A DNA stretch of 42,928 bases from a virus. Both the position numbers and the translations under genes were made by a program. Below the pieces are notes generated by a model. The model searched no databases. It saw only the letters and a program-made list of their open reading frames with translations, and had not been told where the DNA came from. Positions 11,108 to 22,233 of the stretch are shown in pieces (within the stretch, counting starts at the first letter, position 1; each line of letters starts with the position of its first letter). The stretch covers positions 1 to 42,928 of the IMG/VR virus record IMGVR_UViG_3300035670_008791; one strand, written 5' to 3'.

Positions 11108-12046
11108 TTAGAGCTTAACCTCGTATATTTTATACTGGTATTTTTCTCTTTTGTAGATCTCTATGCGCTCCTTTGAGTGTTGCATAAGGTAATTAGTGGA
11201 TTCTTCTGTGGAAAAGTCATCTACGAAATCTATAATATTTACTATCTCTTTCCCTTCGGATAATCTCATTCCTCTTCCTATAGTTTGTTTTATAACTATC
11301 TCAGACTTATAAGATTCTGTTAAAAATATATTGTGGATCTTTTTAATTGAAATACCTGTGGAAAGAGTACCAAAACTAGCAACTAGTATTTTATTCTCTC
11401 CCTCTTCCATTTTGTTTATGAATATCTCTCTTGTATCTGGGTTAGTATCTCCGTCTATATAAAAAACCTCCTTATCATCTGATATCTCTCTTATCCCGTC
11501 ATATATTCTTTTACCATATCCTTCACCTACAGAATTAAAAAGAACTAATGAGTTTTTAGAAACTTTATTTACAAAATTGACAATATAACTTAGTCTTTTT
11601 TCCGATCCAATAACAAGTTTTTTTTCTATATTGAAAAGGTCCTTACCATCTATATCAGTTTTAGACTTTTTTAAATTAGAAAGCTTTTCCTTTATTTCAG
11701 GATCTATCCAATCCATTTTTACAACTTTTACGAGAACTGGTGTAGCATATTTGTTATCGAAAAGAAATTTAGGAGATATTTCCATTATCAATGGACCTAA
11801 AAATTGTTGAATTGTAAGATATTCAGCACTACTCTTATTTGTTATAGTACCAGACAACCCAAATCTCCATTTAGAATCGGTACACAATGACATTATTTTT
11901 TTTATAGAAGTGCTCTGAGCTTGATGACAATTGCTTACTAGTATACCATTAGCTATATAGTTATGATTATTACCACTAATGGATTTTATCCTTAGATTAT
12001 AAACATCCTCCTTATTATCAATTTTTTTTATACTTTTTATTTTCAT
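11108..12046 (-). CDS. uvsW: UvsW helicase, C-terminal half, with C-intein
   Basis: 312 residues. Residues 1-39 are a C-terminal split-intein fragment ending NGILVSN; residue 40 is Cys+1 of the downstream extein. The extein (273 residues) starts CHQAQSTS, completing the DECH box whose D-E lies on the other gene, and carries motif III SGT at 65-67 and motif VI QTIGRGMR at 254-261. Joined to residues 1-235 of the other half this gives 508 residues, close to T4 UvsW (503). UvsW is a superfamily 2 helicase that remodels recombination and stalled-fork intermediates. The start ATG overlaps the stop of the intervening nuclease as TAATG. The gene cannot act alone: the Walker A motif is on the N-half. 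Confidence 0.92.
   Translation of the reverse strand: MKIKSIKKIDNKEDVYNLRIKSISGNNHNYIANGILVSNCHQAQSTSIKKIMSLCTDSKWRFGLSGTITNKSSAEYLTIQQFLGPLIMEISPKFLFDNKYATPVLVKVVKMDWIDPEIKEKLSNLKKSKTDIDGKDLFNIEKKLVIGSEKRLSYIVNFVNKVSKNSLVLFNSVGEGYGKRIYDGIREISDDKEVFYIDGDTNPDTREIFINKMEEGENKILVASFGTLSTGISIKKIHNIFLTESYKSEIVIKQTIGRGMRLSEGKEIVNIIDFVDDFSTEESTNYLMQHSKERIEIYKREKYQYKIYEVKL
11930..12046 (-). other. C-terminal fragment of a split intein in uvsW
   Basis: 39 residues with own Met start. Block F-like KEDVYNLRI...GNNHNYIANGI and block G ILVSN precede Cys+1. The terminal Asn is present, but the usual penultimate His is Ser. Length and layout match C-inteins of known phage split inteins. Confidence 0.9.
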
Positions 12047-12879
12047 TACTTGGAATATCTTATCATTTTTTCTATAAGATACGAAATTCTATCACCATCC
12101 GGTTGGGATGATAAAATATTTTTATCGTATCTACTTACTATCCATTCCTGCGTTATTATATTGTACGTATAACTATTATTTTTACACCACTCTTTAGCAG
12201 AATCTATTTTTTGTTTATTTTCTGGTATTTTACTTTTTGGCTTTATTTCATAAATTATTTTTTTCTCCTGGTCACAAAAATCAGTAATATAGTTTTTATA
12301 TTTTTTACTTTTTAAATCAAAATAGGGTATTCTAATCAATTCATAATACAGATTAGGATTTAATATATAAAAATATGCTTCCCACGAGGATCTAACAAAT
12401 TTTATTTCGTTATTTATCTCTACCCTAACTTTACTTTTAGCCCAAGAATTTGTTATATTAGGAGTAAACTTTCCTTCTAATATTCTTTTATTAATTTTAG
12501 AAGATATTTTTAATCCCATATTTATTCTAGACTCATTAGACATTCTATGTGACGTATTTAAAGATCCCATTTGTTTTTCGCTATAATCTAAATCTGCACA
12601 TTTCCTACTGCAAAATTTTCTAAGTTTCCATCTATCAGGACATTTTAATTTTTTATTATTACACTGATTTCTTTCACATTTACCTAAATTTTCATCCATA
12701 TAGTATAGAAGATCTTTTACATTTTTTATAAAATCTGGTATAGATATTCCAGGGTAATTCTTTATATTTTCGATAGTTCTTTCATCCTTATCTTGAACAA
12801 GAAACATATTATTTTGGGAAAAATATTTTTTATTTTTTTCTATTATAGATTTTAAATTATCTATATCTGTGTACTCCAT
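12046..12879 (-). CDS. Homing-type endonuclease between the uvsW halves
   Basis: 277 residues from the ATG at 12879; a GTG 14 codons earlier is open, but the ATG lies just past the N-half stop and an A-rich leader, so it is preferred. Two pairs of cysteines near 68-94 (C-x4-C, then FCSRKC) suggest a zinc finger. The C-terminal half looks like a PD-(D/E)xK/Vsr-type nuclease: SSWEAYFY (Glu167), YITDF (Asp200) and YEIKPK (Glu211, Lys213). Such genes occur between the halves of split-intein 'fractured' phage genes. It lies in a different frame from both halves, so it is not a frameshifted part of one intein. It probably cuts intein-free uvsW alleles, spreading the locus. Confidence 0.82.
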   Translation of the reverse strand: MEYTDIDNLKSIIEKNKKYFSQNNMFLVQDKDERTIENIKNYPGISIPDFIKNVKDLLYYMDENLGKCERNQCNNKKLKCPDRWKLRKFCSRKCADLDYSEKQMGSLNTSHRMSNESRINMGLKISSKINKRILEGKFTPNITNSWAKSKVRVEINNEIKFVRSSWEAYFYILNPNLYYELIRIPYFDLKSKKYKNYITDFCDQEKKIIYEIKPKSKIPENKQKIDSAKEWCKNNSYTYNIITQEWIVSRYDKNILSSQPDGDRISYLIEKMIRYSK

Positions 12880-12892
12880 GGGTCTTTTATTT

Positions 12893-12901
12893 TTATATAT
12901 C
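12893..12901 (-). promoter_or_regulatory. Late-promoter-like motif for the intervening nuclease
   Basis: Minus-strand GATATATAA followed by AAATAAAAG, 13 bases before the ATG at 12879. It overlaps the last codons (Asp-Ile-stop) of the uvsW N-half. It could give the nuclease and the C-half their own transcript. Confidence 0.42.
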
Positions 12902-13888
12902 CCAAAGTTCATCATTTTCACTCAATTCATCAACTCTTTTCCATTCACCATTTTTTAATCTTAATTTATGATTTCCTGTCACCTTTAATTTTTCCCCAGA
13001 TTCTGTTTCTATCTCATACATCTGATTTTCTTTAGAAAGATTATGATAAACAAATTCTACTTCATTTTCTTCAATCCCCCCTGTAATATTATTTATAGTT
13101 AATACACTTTCTCCTATATTTACTTCTTTTATTTTTTTTAAACTTCCATCGGACATTGTTATTAAAGATTCTGGATGTATACATTCGTCTACAAAAACAG
13201 CTTCAACGTCTTCATAAAATTCTGGTTCCATTTTAACTAGTGACTGGTATGTTCCTATCATTAATCCTGAAGATAGCTTCTTTTTATTTCCCCCATGTAT
13301 TTGCTGAAGTTCACATCCTTCTAATTCATCTAATCCATACTCTTCAAAATCCTCACTTCCCTGCATTATTAGGTTAGCATTAGGTACAACCATTAAAAAC
13401 TTCTTAATCTTGTATACATGCTTCAAATATGCAAGTACAATAAAAGCTATAAGTGTTTTCCCTGAGCTTGTAGCAACTTCAGAAACAGAAAGTTTAAATT
13501 TTATAATTCTCCAAGCTGTTTCTATTTGATAATCTCTAGGTTGGAATTTTTTTCCTTCAAAGAATTTATTACACCATTCTGTAAAATTCTCAAGAGTTAA
13601 AGAACTATCTATAAGTCTTTCTAATCCTCCTATCTCTATTTCTATTTTGTATTTTTCTGCTATTGTGTATAACTCAGACCAGAGTCCTAAAGGAACTCTC
13701 CATATAGGTAACCTCTTATCTACGAAACATATAGCTCCATCCCATATCTTTTTCTTTACCAAGGGGTGAAAAAAATGATTATGTATTTTTTTAGTTAAGG
13801 ATATTTCTATTTGTCTCTTCTCAAATTCCTCATCAAAATGAACCAAACTTAACCAATTATTATCTTCACTAACTATAAATTTTATCAT
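12893..13888 (-). CDS. uvsW: UvsW helicase, N-terminal half, with N-intein
   Basis: 331 residues. Residues 1-235 are the N-terminal part of a UvsW-type superfamily 2 helicase: Q-motif-like FQPRDYQIETAW at 115-126, Walker A ATSSGKT at 139-145, and motif II beginning VFVDE at 231-235. There it stops as helicase: Cys236 starts an N-intein (CIHPESLITMSDG) with block B GNHKL, running to the stop. The interruption falls between the E and C of the DECH box. The C-half gene supplies CHQ and the remaining motifs, so protein trans-splicing is needed for a working helicase. The start abuts the stop of the GIY-YIG gene. Confidence 0.92.
   Translation of the reverse strand: MIKFIVSEDNNWLSLVHFDEEFEKRQIEISLTKKIHNHFFHPLVKKKIWDGAICFVDKRLPIWRVPLGLWSELYTIAEKYKIEIEIGGLERLIDSSLTLENFTEWCNKFFEGKKFQPRDYQIETAWRIIKFKLSVSEVATSSGKTLIAFIVLAYLKHVYKIKKFLMVVPNANLIMQGSEDFEEYGLDELEGCELQQIHGGNKKKLSSGLMIGTYQSLVKMEPEFYEDVEAVFVDECIHPESLITMSDGSLKKIKEVNIGESVLTINNITGGIEENEVEFVYHNLSKENQMYEIETESGEKLKVTGNHKLRLKNGEWKRVDELSENDELWDI
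12896..13183 (-). other. N-terminal fragment of a split intein in uvsW
   Basis: 96 residues (236-331 of the N-half) with Cys1, block A SLITMSDGSLKKIKEVNIGE, and block B KLKVTGNHKL containing the T-x-x-H motif. With the 39-residue C-fragment this makes a mini-intein of 135 residues, lacking an internal endonuclease domain. Confidence 0.9.
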
Positions 13889-14572
13889 TTATTTTTCATT
13901 TTTGTACTTCCAATAAAATCCCCCTGCAGTTTTACCCTTACCACTTAAAACTTTTTTTATAGGTACACCTATATAATTTTCTGCATTTTTTATTGAATCA
14001 AATTCATTTAATATTTCACCAATAGAATTTAATTGGTAAACAGGTTTATAGTGAGATTTGCCCATTCTTTCTCTAACTTCTTTAGAAAAAGATATTCCAA
14101 GTGTTCTCTTATTTCCTATCATTTTTTTATGTATATTCTTTAAATGTTCTAACTGCTTTTCTGAAACCTTTCCCTTTCTTGCTAAACTTAAATTCTTTCT
14201 GTGTGTGTCCGTAAATTTTCTATTTGATATACCTTGTCCCCCGTTAGATAAATTGGATAAAGGACCTGTTTTTAAATCTACTCTCCCTATAGATATTATC
14301 ATATTTTTCTCAAGTTCTAAAGCTTCATTTTCTTTCATATTATCTCGATATTTAATAATTATAGGCTCAAGATTTAATGATAATAATTCTTTTATAATAT
14401 AGTCTTTTAATAAATCTTTACAAATCCCATTTTTTACTTTTTCTAGATGTGTTTTATATCTTCTTTCTTTTCCTTTACCTATATAAAAAGGTTCATACTC
14501 AAAATTATAATTTATATAATTATAATTACCTGGCTTTCTTGGGTCTAAATAAACGTATACATAATGTTCCAT
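13889..14572 (-). CDS. GIY-YIG homing endonuclease with NUMOD domains
   Basis: 227 residues. The N-terminus has a GIY-YIG-type nuclease fold (HYVYVYLDP..., then EPFYIGKGKERRY with the Arg/Tyr and a later LEKNMI Glu). A FTDTHRKNLSLARKGK segment is a NUMOD3-type DNA-binding repeat, and PVYQLNSIGEILNEFDSIKN is a NUMOD1-like helical module. It is an independent gene abutting the uvsW N-half (stop TAA, then ATG), as expected for a mobile endonuclease that targets the neighbouring region. No intron sequence is seen around it. Confidence 0.88.
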   Translation of the reverse strand: MEHYVYVYLDPRKPGNYNYINYNFEYEPFYIGKGKERRYKTHLEKVKNGICKDLLKDYIIKELLSLNLEPIIIKYRDNMKENEALELEKNMIISIGRVDLKTGPLSNLSNGGQGISNRKFTDTHRKNLSLARKGKVSEKQLEHLKNIHKKMIGNKRTLGISFSKEVRERMGKSHYKPVYQLNSIGEILNEFDSIKNAENYIGVPIKKVLSGKGKTAGGFYWKYKNEK

Positions 14573-17304: not shown

Positions 17305-18015
17305 TTATTTAATTATTTTATATTTATTAATTATATAATTAATATTTAATAATGTTTCACTATATTCTATTATTCCGATACAATCGATTTTAAAGCATTC
17401 GTTTACTGATCCAGGGAAATTTAGAAGCGGTCTATATTTAAAATTTTTAACTTCTTTATGTATTTTTTTCTCTATATTAAAAATAAATTCAGAATCACCC
17501 TCTATAATTAGATATTTTTGATATTTATACGGCATTAATTTATTACAAGAAAATCTACAATCTATTTCTTTTTTGGTTATCCCTATTTTAACAAATTCTT
17601 CTAATTCATTTTTACATATTATAACATAACAATATGATTTTAATGATTGTTTAATGAATCTTTTTTTACTAAATCCCTTGTTTTCGTTACCACATTTAGG
17701 ACAGCCATGTCCTTTTTTTAAATGGTTAGGTCTTGCATAAAAATCCCCGTGTATTTTACAAATAATGTTTACTTTTTTTAGCGACCCAGAATACTCAACT
17801 TTATTATATATGTAAGAATCCCCGTATATAGAATTACATATACTTATTAATTTATTTTTCTTATAAGATTGTTTATTTCCAGTGTTAACTAAAGATTTAA
17901 AATATTTAATTGATTTTTTTCTACATATACATTTTTTACAGGTAGATTTAGATTTCTTATTTATGTTGTAAAAATCTATAGGATATTTTTCTTTATTACA
18001 GATCTTACAGAACAT
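17305..18015 (-). CDS. Homing-type endonuclease, Zn-ribbon plus T5orf172-like
   Basis: 236 residues. The N-terminus has a CKIC...CKKC zinc ribbon. A middle KKVNIICKIHGDFYARPNHL and GHGCPKCGNE module is DUF723-like (DNA-binding, common in phage mobile endonucleases). The C-terminus (SYCYVIICKNELEEFVKIGI, then DCRF) fits the T5orf172 variant of the GIY-YIG nuclease fold. It lies between gp32 and the RuvC-like gene and is coded by AT-richer DNA than its neighbours, as other mobile genes here are. It is most likely a free-standing homing endonuclease. Confidence 0.75.
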   Translation of the reverse strand: MFCKICNKEKYPIDFYNINKKSKSTCKKCICRKKSIKYFKSLVNTGNKQSYKKNKLISICNSIYGDSYIYNKVEYSGSLKKVNIICKIHGDFYARPNHLKKGHGCPKCGNENKGFSKKRFIKQSLKSYCYVIICKNELEEFVKIGITKKEIDCRFSCNKLMPYKYQKYLIIEGDSEFIFNIEKKIHKEVKNFKYRPLLNFPGSVNECFKIDCIGIIEYSETLLNINYIINKYKIIK

Positions 18016-19281: not shown

Positions 19282-19902
19282 ATGATCATATACAAAACAA
19301 CAAATTTAATAAACAACAAGATCTATGTAGGTCAGGATTCTAAGAATGACCCTAGCTATCTAGGATCGGGAAAGATAATAAAAGATGCTATTAAAAAATA
19401 TGGAGAATCTAATTTTATTAAAGAAATTTTGGAAGAATGTACAACCAAAGAGGAATTAGACGAAAGAGAAATATATTGGATTAATAAATTAAACTCTATA
19501 AATAGTGAAATAGGATATAATTTAGCATTAGGAGGAAATTCGCCTATGAAAAACAGAAGACATACAGATAAAACCAAGATAAAGCTTTCATTATTATGGA
19601 AGGGCAAGAAGAGAACTCCGGAAAATAAAGAAAAATTATCTAAATCAAAGACAGGAACAAAACACACAGAAGAAACTAAGAAAAAAATTAGCAAATCTGG
19701 AAAAGGTAGAATTGCTCCAAATAAAGGAATAAAGACCTCAGAAGAAACTAAGGAAAAACAAAGATTGGCTAAGGTTGGTAAAAAGTTGACAAAAGATCAC
19801 ATCAACAAAATAGTAGCTAAAAATAAAGGAAGAAAAAATACAGAAGAAGCTAAAGCTAATATGAGATTGGCTTGGGAAAAAAGAAAATTAAAAAAAACTT
19901 AA
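19282..19902 (+). CDS. GIY-YIG homing endonuclease with NUMOD3 repeats
   Basis: 206 residues on the plus strand, opposite to nearly all neighbours. The nuclease domain has MIIYKTTNLINNKIYVGQ and the catalytic Glu in EREIYWINKLNS. The C-terminal half has repeated NUMOD3-type DNA-binding segments (HTDKTKIKLS, HTEETKKKIS, TSEETKEKQR, NTEEAKANMR). Its stop abuts the stop of the convergent virion gene at 19903. Inverted orientation, and a place between the tube-like gene and the virion block, point to insertion of a mobile gene. Confidence 0.9.
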   Translation: MIIYKTTNLINNKIYVGQDSKNDPSYLGSGKIIKDAIKKYGESNFIKEILEECTTKEELDEREIYWINKLNSINSEIGYNLALGGNSPMKNRRHTDKTKIKLSLLWKGKKRTPENKEKLSKSKTGTKHTEETKKKISKSGKGRIAPNKGIKTSEETKEKQRLAKVGKKLTKDHINKIVAKNKGRKNTEEAKANMRLAWEKRKLKKT

Positions 19903-22233
19903 TTATTTAGTACCGGGACCTTTTTCTAAAGGAGAACTAGTAACAGGGAATTGTAAAATATTACAATATTCAATATATTTAGGATCAAATGTTCTTGAAT
20001 CTATTTTAGGATGTATTTGTAATGCTGCTTGTAAAAATTCACTAGGTTTTAATCCCTTAAACATCATTGCTCCAGGTGATCCCGGTTTAAAGTAAAAGTC
20101 TACCACACTTTGTGCGTTTAATCCCTGTGATTCTTTACCCGAGATAGAATCTGCAAGAGCAGTTATATTTATATTATTTACAGGTGTATTAACATTAGGA
20201 GCTGTTGTTGAAGCTCCTGTTGCAGAAGAATATCCTCCAGTTGTATTAAGAAGATTTTTTGGAATTAAGCTTAAAACAGAGCTACTTCCCATAACATAAG
20301 GAGAAGAGGTTAGAATTTGAGCTCCTGTAGCTGATAAAGGTACTCCCGCAACAACCTGAGAACCAGTAGTGGTAGAAGTTCCTGTTACATTCGTTGTTGT
20401 AACAGTTGTTGTTCCAGTAGTTCCTGTAGCTCCTGTAGATCCTACAGTACCAGTAACACCAGTTCCAGTGGTTGTTTGAGTTGAAATAAATTCTTCCTGA
20501 GTTTGCCATTTTCCAGAATAAAGTTTAGTTTCTATTCCGTCAGGAGTTCTTGAAATTATATAAAAATCCCTTGAGGTAAAACCTAACACTTTTTTAGAAT
20601 TTGTTTCTACCGTTTTAAAAGCTATTTGACCTTGTGAAGGATTAGATATTGTTGTTTTATTTTTAATATTCTCCACTCTCACACTCTGACCAGTTTTATC
20701 TAGGAAAACTAAATAATAAGTAAGAGAATTTCCAAGATCTAGTATCTCAGGTGTAGTTCCACCTTTCAAATTATAAACTGTGAACTTATAGAAATTATCA
20801 AAAGGATCGATAACTATTTTTGCTTTTCCTTGACCATATATTTGCACAGCTTCAGGGAAAGAGGTCTCAGAAATTAAATTTCCGTTCTTATCTATTACTA
20901 TGGTTTCTTTTGTAACTGCTATATTATTGTCTTTATAAAAAACAGGAATCTTTTTCTCGATTGGAGAAGGATTAGGAGCAACCCCGTAAGGATTTACAAC
21001 ACTAGCAGCTTGTAAAACTTTATTATAAACTTTCTGAGCATAAGCTCCAGTAGTTAGATTTATCTTATTAACTATTCTTCCATATTTACTTACATCAAAA
21101 GATGTAAATGAGGATCTTCTTATGATTTGATTCTGATTAGATTTATTAACTAATCTCATTGTGTAATTTACAATAAAAGAAGTTGTCAAAGGATTAATTA
21201 AAACGGGTCTAAATATAAATGGAGAATTATAATCCTGTGTCTGTGTTGTACTAAAATTATATGTTGTAATATAGGATAACCCTACCTGTTCTTTTAATTC
21301 TATTTCATGTATAACATAATAAACATTTCCTACTCTTCCTTCTGCATTTATAAAATCCTCTAAAAAGTTACCCCCCCAAGTTGGATAATATTCTATATAA
21401 TTATAGAAAGAGTTTTCTTGTATAACAGCAGCTAATCCTGAAAAATTATCTGCAGATTGAATAGAAGCTTGAGCTCTAATTTGAGCTATATAATTCTCGT
21501 ATCCATTCTTTAAAACAGTTTGACTTATCTCCATTAAGGTAAACTCAATAGGAGCGTCTTTTAAAAATCCGTATCCATCAGAAGATATTTTAGCAGCAAG
21601 AGTATTTACTTGTGCAGGGCTTCCAGCCAGAATATCAAATTCATAAACCATGTTCTGGTAGTTAGGAATTTTAACCTGAACATATCTGTCATAAAGAACC
21701 CCACCTAAATAAATTGGATTAGGATTAAGAACAGCTAGATCTATGCTTGATGCTGTGACAATTAAATTAGTTACAGTTGCTTTTTTACCAGTTCTTTCTT
21801 GAAATTTTATCTGTAGAATTACTCCGTCTAACCCTTGGAAATTATATCCAGAAGCCAAATGAAATTTTACAGTGTCATAATAAACCCCTATATTCGAGGG
21901 AAAAACTACAGGAAGATTTGAGATCGAAGTTAATTTAGGATCTGTATCTAAATAAGGAGTTAAATAGTCATTATCTAGAGTTACAAATCTATTTTTTTCT
22001 GTTTGTACAACACTGAGATCTCTTACATTGTTAGTTACGATTTGATCTTGTGGTCTATTTAAGATTTGAACAGCATTATCGAAATACCCGTTTACTATTT
22101 TTTCAAATCCAACTGCTGGATTACCCGTATTTACAAAATATTGCTCAGGTGTAGGTGCAGTTGTATAATTATACTCGAGTAGTAAGTAATCTGTTAATCT
22201 TAAAAATCTTTGTGTTGATGTATAGCTAGGCAT
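19903..22233 (-). CDS. Virion structural protein with Thr/Gly-rich region
   Basis: 776 residues, beta-rich, with no catalytic motifs. The N-terminus MPSYTSTQRFLRLTDYLLLEYN and repeated Asn/Tyr/Thr-rich strands look like a phage tail or baseplate protein. Residues about 580-630 are a low-complexity stretch (TGTVGSTGATGTTGTTT type). The C-terminus is compact (FLQAALQIHPKIDSRTFDPK, then YIEYCNILQFPVTSS). L-L-L-E-Y loosely resembles the leader cleavage rule, but the residue after Glu is wrong. The gene heads toward the convergent plus-strand endonuclease, so it is probably the last of the virion operon. Precise role unknown. Confidence 0.7.
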   Translation of the reverse strand: MPSYTSTQRFLRLTDYLLLEYNYTTAPTPEQYFVNTGNPAVGFEKIVNGYFDNAVQILNRPQDQIVTNNVRDLSVVQTEKNRFVTLDNDYLTPYLDTDPKLTSISNLPVVFPSNIGVYYDTVKFHLASGYNFQGLDGVILQIKFQERTGKKATVTNLIVTASSIDLAVLNPNPIYLGGVLYDRYVQVKIPNYQNMVYEFDILAGSPAQVNTLAAKISSDGYGFLKDAPIEFTLMEISQTVLKNGYENYIAQIRAQASIQSADNFSGLAAVIQENSFYNYIEYYPTWGGNFLEDFINAEGRVGNVYYVIHEIELKEQVGLSYITTYNFSTTQTQDYNSPFIFRPVLINPLTTSFIVNYTMRLVNKSNQNQIIRRSSFTSFDVSKYGRIVNKINLTTGAYAQKVYNKVLQAASVVNPYGVAPNPSPIEKKIPVFYKDNNIAVTKETIVIDKNGNLISETSFPEAVQIYGQGKAKIVIDPFDNFYKFTVYNLKGGTTPEILDLGNSLTYYLVFLDKTGQSVRVENIKNKTTISNPSQGQIAFKTVETNSKKVLGFTSRDFYIISRTPDGIETKLYSGKWQTQEEFISTQTTTGTGVTGTVGSTGATGTTGTTTVTTTNVTGTSTTTGSQVVAGVPLSATGAQILTSSPYVMGSSSVLSLIPKNLLNTTGGYSSATGASTTAPNVNTPVNNINITALADSISGKESQGLNAQSVVDFYFKPGSPGAMMFKGLKPSEFLQAALQIHPKIDSRTFDPKYIEYCNILQFPVTSSPLEKGPGTK
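20360..20485 (-). repeat. Thr/Gly low-complexity coding repeat
   Basis: Near-tandem codons for Gly-Thr, Val-Thr and Thr-Thr within the 776-residue virion gene (bounds approximate). Such repeats vary in length between related phages by slippage and often form flexible surface segments. Confidence 0.6.

What the first reader, a model, noticed from the sequence alone, without database searches (positions are those of the whole stretch)
11108..13888. Fractured uvsW: helicase rebuilt by a split intein with a nuclease gene between the halves
Seen: two same-strand genes carry UvsW motifs I-II and III-VI. The first ends in an N-intein after VFVDE and the second begins with a C-intein before Cys-His, so the break is inside the DECH box. 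Between them is a separate nuclease gene in another frame with its own start and stop. Known: split-intein 'fractured genes' with an intervening endonuclease occur in phage replication and metabolism genes. Inference: trans-splicing gives a 508-residue UvsW. I do not recall uvsW as a described fractured gene.
Basis: partly seen in the sequence, partly recalled or inferred. Interest (0 to 1): 0.85.

Follow-up and report, generated by a model that had tools for sequence, protein, structure and literature searches.

The report
Phage helicase gene fractured by split intein
In this phage a DNA-repair helicase gene (uvsW) is cut in two by a mobile element whose two protein pieces should splice the halves back together, with a DNA-cutting gene between them; the arrangement type is known, but this target gene is not described in any paper I could search, and public genomes show the element recently entering this gene.

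Summary
On the minus strand, 13888-12893 encodes T4-type UvsW residues up to VFVDE plus a 96-residue N-intein. The stretch 12046-11108 encodes a 39-residue C-intein plus CHQ...: 235 + 273 = 508 aa after splicing. A separate frame between them encodes a nuclease. It is not a sequencing error: 50 in-frame stops lie between the halves, and helicase genes interrupted at the same codon recur in 43 clusters of phage loci (36 split with a nuclease, 5 split without, 2 contiguous inteins), including Salmonella phage S16, Proteus phage PM2 and Prevotella Lak-B phages. Close relatives carry an intact uvsW with the exact empty site. Intein and helicase trees conflict. Lak-B4 (occupied) and Lak-B5 (empty) are about 98.5% identical, with differences concentrated in about 150 nt around the insertion, as expected for homing. 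The nuclease is TnsA-like PD-(D/E)XK, not the EDxHD/Vsr-like type I associate with 'fractured genes'. Best reading: a mobile split-intein/nuclease element in uvsW, with trans-splicing restoring the helicase. It is a new member of a known kind; splicing and cleavage are inferred, not shown. The original 'fractured genes' paper was not readable here.

The parts
13184..13888 (-). N-extein of UvsW, 235 aa (motifs I and start of II, ends VFVDE)
12896..13183 (-). N-intein, 96 aa (Cys1, block B TGNH); stop codon at 12893-12895
12046..12912 (-). Free-standing TnsA-like PD-(D/E)XK nuclease (ATG 12912; alternative GTG 12921), E178/D211/E222/K224; overlaps the N-half end and abuts the C-half start
11930..12046 (-). 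C-intein, 39 aa, ends ...ILVSN before +1 Cys
11111..11929 (-). C-extein of UvsW, 273 aa (CHQ..., motifs III-VI); stop at 11108-11110
13889..14572 (-). GIY-YIG/NUMOD1 homing-type endonuclease directly upstream of uvsW; same place as T4 segE; separately polymorphic in relatives

Best explanation
This is a mobile composite element (split intein plus a free-standing TnsA-like nuclease gene) inserted between the codons for DE and CH of the helicase motif II of uvsW. The three reading frames are translated separately from overlapping or abutting genes. The two intein halves associate and trans-splice, joining VFVDE to CHQ and giving a 508-residue UvsW. The nuclease is expected to cut uvsW genes that lack the element near the same site, so that recombination repair copies the element, with short flanking tracts, into them. 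Shown: the gene architecture, conserved intein and nuclease active-site residues, precise empty sites in close relatives, tree conflict, and divergent flanking tracts confined to the insertion site in near-identical phages. Inferred: splicing, nuclease cleavage at the empty site, and UvsW function after splicing.
For: Architecture and domains. UvsW structures. Recurrence: 36 clusters split with nuclease, 5 split without, 2 contiguous; all have C1, TxNH and the DE| junction, and +1 is Cys (one row, L002, was mis-parsed in the tally and reads SN|CH). Exact empty sites in the intact relatives inspected. L015 (occupied) versus L022 (empty): 90-95% DNA identity over 11 kb. Lak-B4 versus Lak-B5: about 98.5% identity with a precise 1654-bp insert; 34 mismatches in the 150 nt around the site against 16 in the adjoining 1250 nt. 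Window, L008 and L036 form one supported clade in the intein tree (98/88), but the helicase data reject them as a clade, p-AU 4.5e-11. Nuclease: model pLDDT 90, TnsA as best fold, invariant E/D/E and near-invariant K across 28 homologues. Nuclease remnants in L095 and L106 fit loss after invasion.
Against: No splicing, cleavage or homing was measured. The penultimate intein residue is Ser in the window and most relatives; only 2 of 43 clusters have His, which could slow Asn cyclisation. The structure model of a contiguous relative (L078) was not confident in the intein region. Synonymous sites between the window and its nearest occupied relatives are near saturation, so dN/dS values (0.07-0.3 where defined) are rough, and base composition explains part of the apparent difference. 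The TnsA fold match is modest (E 0.008, TM about 0.3).
Confidence: 0.9

Rival explanations
1. The halves are not joined covalently: the gene is broken and the two halves work as a non-covalent two-piece helicase (as reported for an endonuclease-split phage ribonucleotide reductase), or UvsW is lost.
For: Separate ORFs with their own starts; splicing not shown. A genes-in-pieces reductase that keeps function without splicing is cited in PMC3322345 and PMC10448857.
Against: Both halves carry conserved intein motifs in 43 of 43 clusters, and the break lies inside motif II, where unspliced halves would carry 96 and 39 extra residues. The exteins remain strongly constrained.
Confidence: 0.06
2. Sequencing or assembly artefact of a continuous intein-containing uvsW.
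For: The window is a metagenomic virus record.
Against: 50 in-frame stops between the halves, a different frame for the nuclease, and the same layout in independent contigs and in cultured phages S16 and PM2.
Confidence: 0.005
3. The nuclease no longer drives mobility; the element is inherited vertically and empty relatives arose by precise loss.
For: Nuclease lost or decayed in five split clusters; tree counts cannot tell gain from loss.
Against: Divergent tracts confined to the flanks of the insertion in Lak-B4 versus Lak-B5, and similarly in L015 versus L022, point to transfer from a diverged donor. In L008 versus L036 the element keeps more synonymous similarity than the helicase (0.33 versus 0.10 excess). 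The nuclease active site is conserved.
Confidence: 0.1

Closest known systems
Fractured genes with split inteins (Dassa et al. 2009, e.g. gp41-1, NrdJ-1, IMPDH-1; recalled, original text not held)
   Same: Conserved enzyme gene split inside an intein, with a free-standing endonuclease gene between the intein halves; N about 96 and C about 39 residues.
   Different: Target is uvsW at motif II; nuclease is TnsA-like PD-(D/E)XK rather than EDxHD/Vsr-like.
Split uvsW in Salmonella phage S16 (gp114/114.1/115), Proteus phage PM2, Prevotella Lak-B2/4/7/8
   Same: Same gene, same DE|CH junction, same nuclease family.
   Different: About 30-40% identical in the halves; in S16 and PM2 annotated as two helicases plus a hypothetical protein; Lak-B4 copy uses TAG as a sense codon.
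Split large terminase of T4-like phages (e.g. Shewanella phage Thanatos-2; GOS-TerL split intein)
   Same: Gene split in two, with a related nuclease.
   Different: Different target gene; in Thanatos-2 the nuclease sequence lies in the same ORF as the N-terminal part.
T4 SegE (GIY-YIG, between inh and uvsW, targets uvsW; PMC2988022)
   Same: A homing endonuclease tied to uvsW; the window's 13889-14572 gene sits at the matching place.
   Different: Stand-alone, not part of the split intein; the window-type gene is present or absent independently of it.

Membership tests
T4-type UvsW helicase | SF2 helicase core with full-length match to UvsW when halves are joined | tested here: met
   1RIF/2OCA match both exteins, abutting at residue ~235; intact relatives of 508-513 aa
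Intein (class 1) | Cys1, block B TxxH, terminal Asn, +1 nucleophile | tested here: met
   C1, TGNH, N, +1 Cys; conserved in 43 clusters; penultimate His absent (Ser)
Split intein | Two halves on separate ORFs that trans-splice | not testable with these tools
   Separate ORFs shown; splicing needs an experiment
Fractured-gene arrangement | Free-standing endonuclease ORF between the intein halves in a conserved enzyme gene | tested here: met
EDxHD/Vsr-like homing endonuclease family | Vsr-like catalytic domain | tested here: not met
   Fold search top hits are TnsA, no Vsr among the 50 listed; Pfam TnsA-like in 23 of 28 homologues; weak DUF559 hits in 5
TnsA-like PD-(D/E)XK nuclease | E...D...(E/Q)xK active site on a TnsA-type fold | tested here: met
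   E178, D211, E222, K224 conserved; Pfam PF08722 over cut-off; fold match modest
Homing element | Cuts the empty allele and is copied in with co-conversion of flanks | tested here: inconclusive
   Genomic footprint present; cleavage not tested
SegE-type free-standing GIY-YIG | GIY-YIG nuclease adjacent to and cutting uvsW | tested here: inconclusive
   Position and GIY-YIG domain met; cleavage not testable; sequence relation to SegE not established

The most novel reading that the evidence does not exclude
The split inteins with TnsA-like nucleases form a distinct, widespread class of mobile element in large phages that repeatedly targets the nucleotide-binding core of replication enzymes: UvsW at DE|CH, gp44 clamp loader at DE|CD, and others. 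Its whole life cycle (empty, invaded, nuclease lost but still split, contiguous intein) is visible in public genomes.
Probability: 0.4. Interest if true: 0.65.

Novelty: new member of a known kind. Interest (0 to 1): 0.52.

Why it matters
It adds a recombination helicase, broken inside its ATPase motif, to the genes that phages rebuild by protein trans-splicing, and provides some 40 natural split-intein clusters, many with an unusual Ser before the terminal Asn, that could be tested as tools. The Lak-B4/B5 and L015/L022 pairs are natural before-and-after snapshots of homing by a split-intein element, and the lineages without nuclease show that the split state outlives its nuclease.

Tried and rejected
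Assembly-error or frameshift explanation: rejected. Synechococcus phage S-H34, which seemed to match the C-intein: intact single ORF. A link between the upstream GIY-YIG gene and the intein: not supported; it is absent beside occupied L036, shortened in L015 and present beside intact L010. dN/dS as proof of recent transfer: not usable for the window because synonymous sites are near saturation; a codon-composition control showed a strong excess only for L008 versus L036. Structure of the contiguous-intein relative L078: intein region mostly under pLDDT 50, uninformative. Solved-structure sequence search for the nuclease: a single E 0.001 hit to a chain named RPB_PLP3_R6 with no stretch passing on its own, and a non-significant thymidine kinase hit, both discounted. 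Near-identical DNA in GenBank phages: none. Prokaryote genomes: one good full-length relative in a Flavobacterium MAG contig; the rest were weak or partial matches, not followed up.

Full report
What is there. On the minus strand of this 42.9-kb IMG/VR phage fragment, three same-strand genes lie in a row. The first (13888-12893) encodes 235 residues of a helicase ending VFVDE and then a 96-residue N-intein. The second (12912 or 12921 to 12046) encodes a nuclease in a different frame. The third (12046-11108) encodes a 39-residue C-intein and then 273 helicase residues starting CHQ. The joined exteins make 508 residues. Between the halves the N-half frame holds 50 stops, so a base error cannot have split a continuous gene.

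Identity. Pfam finds helicase domains in both exteins, Intein_splicing in both halves (the C-half below the curated cut-off) and a TnsA-like nuclease domain in the middle gene. Profiles of the halves match the solved T4 UvsW structures 1RIF and 2OCA with E-values of 8e-80 (N-half) and 1e-105 (C-half), meeting at the intein junction. The N-intein also matches DnaB and NrdJ-1 inteins. PHROG families 16259 and 9690 (330 and 306 positions) correspond to the two halves with their intein parts, so split UvsW proteins are already catalogued, only not recognised as such.

Recurrence. A profile survey of loci from three IMG/VR scans and annotated phages gave 43 clusters (at 95% intein identity) of helicase genes interrupted at this one codon: 36 split with a nuclease between, 5 split without a detectable nuclease, 2 with a contiguous intein. 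In all, the upstream residues are DE, the intein starts with Cys and has TxNH in block B, and the residue after the intein is Cys (one row, L002, was mis-parsed in the tally; one search shows SN|CH). The most diverged exteins match UvsW only distantly and may be other SF2 helicases. Cultured examples include Salmonella phage S16 and relatives and Proteus phage PM2; Prevotella phages Lak-B2/4/7/8 match all three genes, and Lak-B4 reads TAG as Gln. Close relatives of the window have intact uvsW with exactly joined DE-CH codons.

Mobility. In the helicase tree the window, L008 and L036 are interleaved with intact genes; in the intein tree they form one supported clade. Forcing them together on helicase data is rejected, p-AU 4.5e-11. 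L015 (occupied) and L022 (empty) share 90-95% DNA identity over 11 kb apart from the insert, with lower identity just beside it. Lak-B4 and Lak-B5 are about 98.5% identical, with a precise 1654-bp insert in B4. Right beside the insert there are 7 mismatches in the last 50 nt upstream and 27 in the first 100 nt downstream, against 16 in the adjoining 1250 nt. That is the footprint expected if the element was copied in together with short flanks from a diverged donor. Five split clusters lack a recognisable nuclease gene, and two of these (L095, L106) keep recognisable fragments of it, so the split state can persist after the nuclease is lost.

The nuclease. Across 28 homologues the residues equivalent to E178, D211 and E222 are invariant and K224 nearly so. 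The AlphaFold model is confident (pLDDT 90). Its best solved matches are three TnsA chains (E 0.008-0.03, probability 0.99-1.00), with no Vsr-type nuclease in the 50 listed. TnsA-like Pfam matches occur in 23 of 28 and NUMOD3 DNA-binding motifs in 6. I recall, without being able to read the original, that the family named with fractured genes is the Vsr-like EDxHD group; PMC12350094 cites that paper for the EDxHD/Vsr domain. The nuclease here therefore differs, although PD-(D/E)xK homing endonucleases as such are known (PMC3943268). A quick tree of the nucleases groups them mostly by target gene, with the uvsW set not forming one clade apart from the clamp-loader, AAA and terminase sets.

Mechanism and limits. 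Trans-splicing of the two halves and nuclease-driven homing are the best explanation. Neither was measured. The Ser before the terminal Asn, instead of His, is a real oddity shared by most clusters. dN/dS is low in all parts, but synonymous sites are close to saturated and composition matters, so I use it only as a sign of protein constraint.

Novelty. The kind is known; the target gene is, as far as the searchable literature goes, undescribed as a fractured gene. The founding paper could not be read, so an earlier mention cannot be excluded.

Noticed in passing
window 13889-14572 (-): GIY-YIG/NUMOD1 endonuclease gene abutting the uvsW start, at the place of T4 segE; absent, shortened or present in relatives independently of the intein.
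   Followed up: partly
window 17305-18015 (-) and 19282-19902 (+): Two more homing-type nuclease genes (T5orf172-like; GIY-YIG with NUMOD3), making four nuclease genes within about 8 kb.
   Followed up: no
L049, L050, L053, L054, L056, L058, L060: DNA polymerase clamp loader (gp44-like) genes with an intein of the same type starting after the Walker B DE codons and the same nuclease family (C-half also seen in L049, L050, L053, L054, L056).
   Followed up: partly
L113-L117, L119-L121, L125-L129: Ligase-type genes (RNA ligase/tail-fibre attachment catalyst, RNA ligase, DNA ligase) that appear interrupted by split inteins after a DG motif; those checked by family search are L113, L120, L121, L125 and L129.
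   Followed up: no
L078, L079, L098: Contiguous (unsplit) inteins at the same uvsW site, with no nuclease.
   Followed up: partly
L095 5129-5295, L106 5528-5890: Remnants of the nuclease gene between still-split intein halves.
   Followed up: partly
L096, L099, L106, L107, L109, L111: N-extein itself interrupted a second time around profile positions 141-161; in L099 and L109 the insert matches the N-intein profile.
   Followed up: no
L027 952-1392: Intein-like (Hint) domain inside a protein that resembles the C-terminal part of window 19903-22233.
   Followed up: no
L131 433-3533 (Shewanella phage Thanatos-2): Large terminase in two ORFs, with a nuclease of this family in the first ORF.
   Followed up: partly
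L002 6042-7283: In Lak-B4 the nuclease holds 8 recoded TAG codons while each helicase half holds 1.
   Followed up: no
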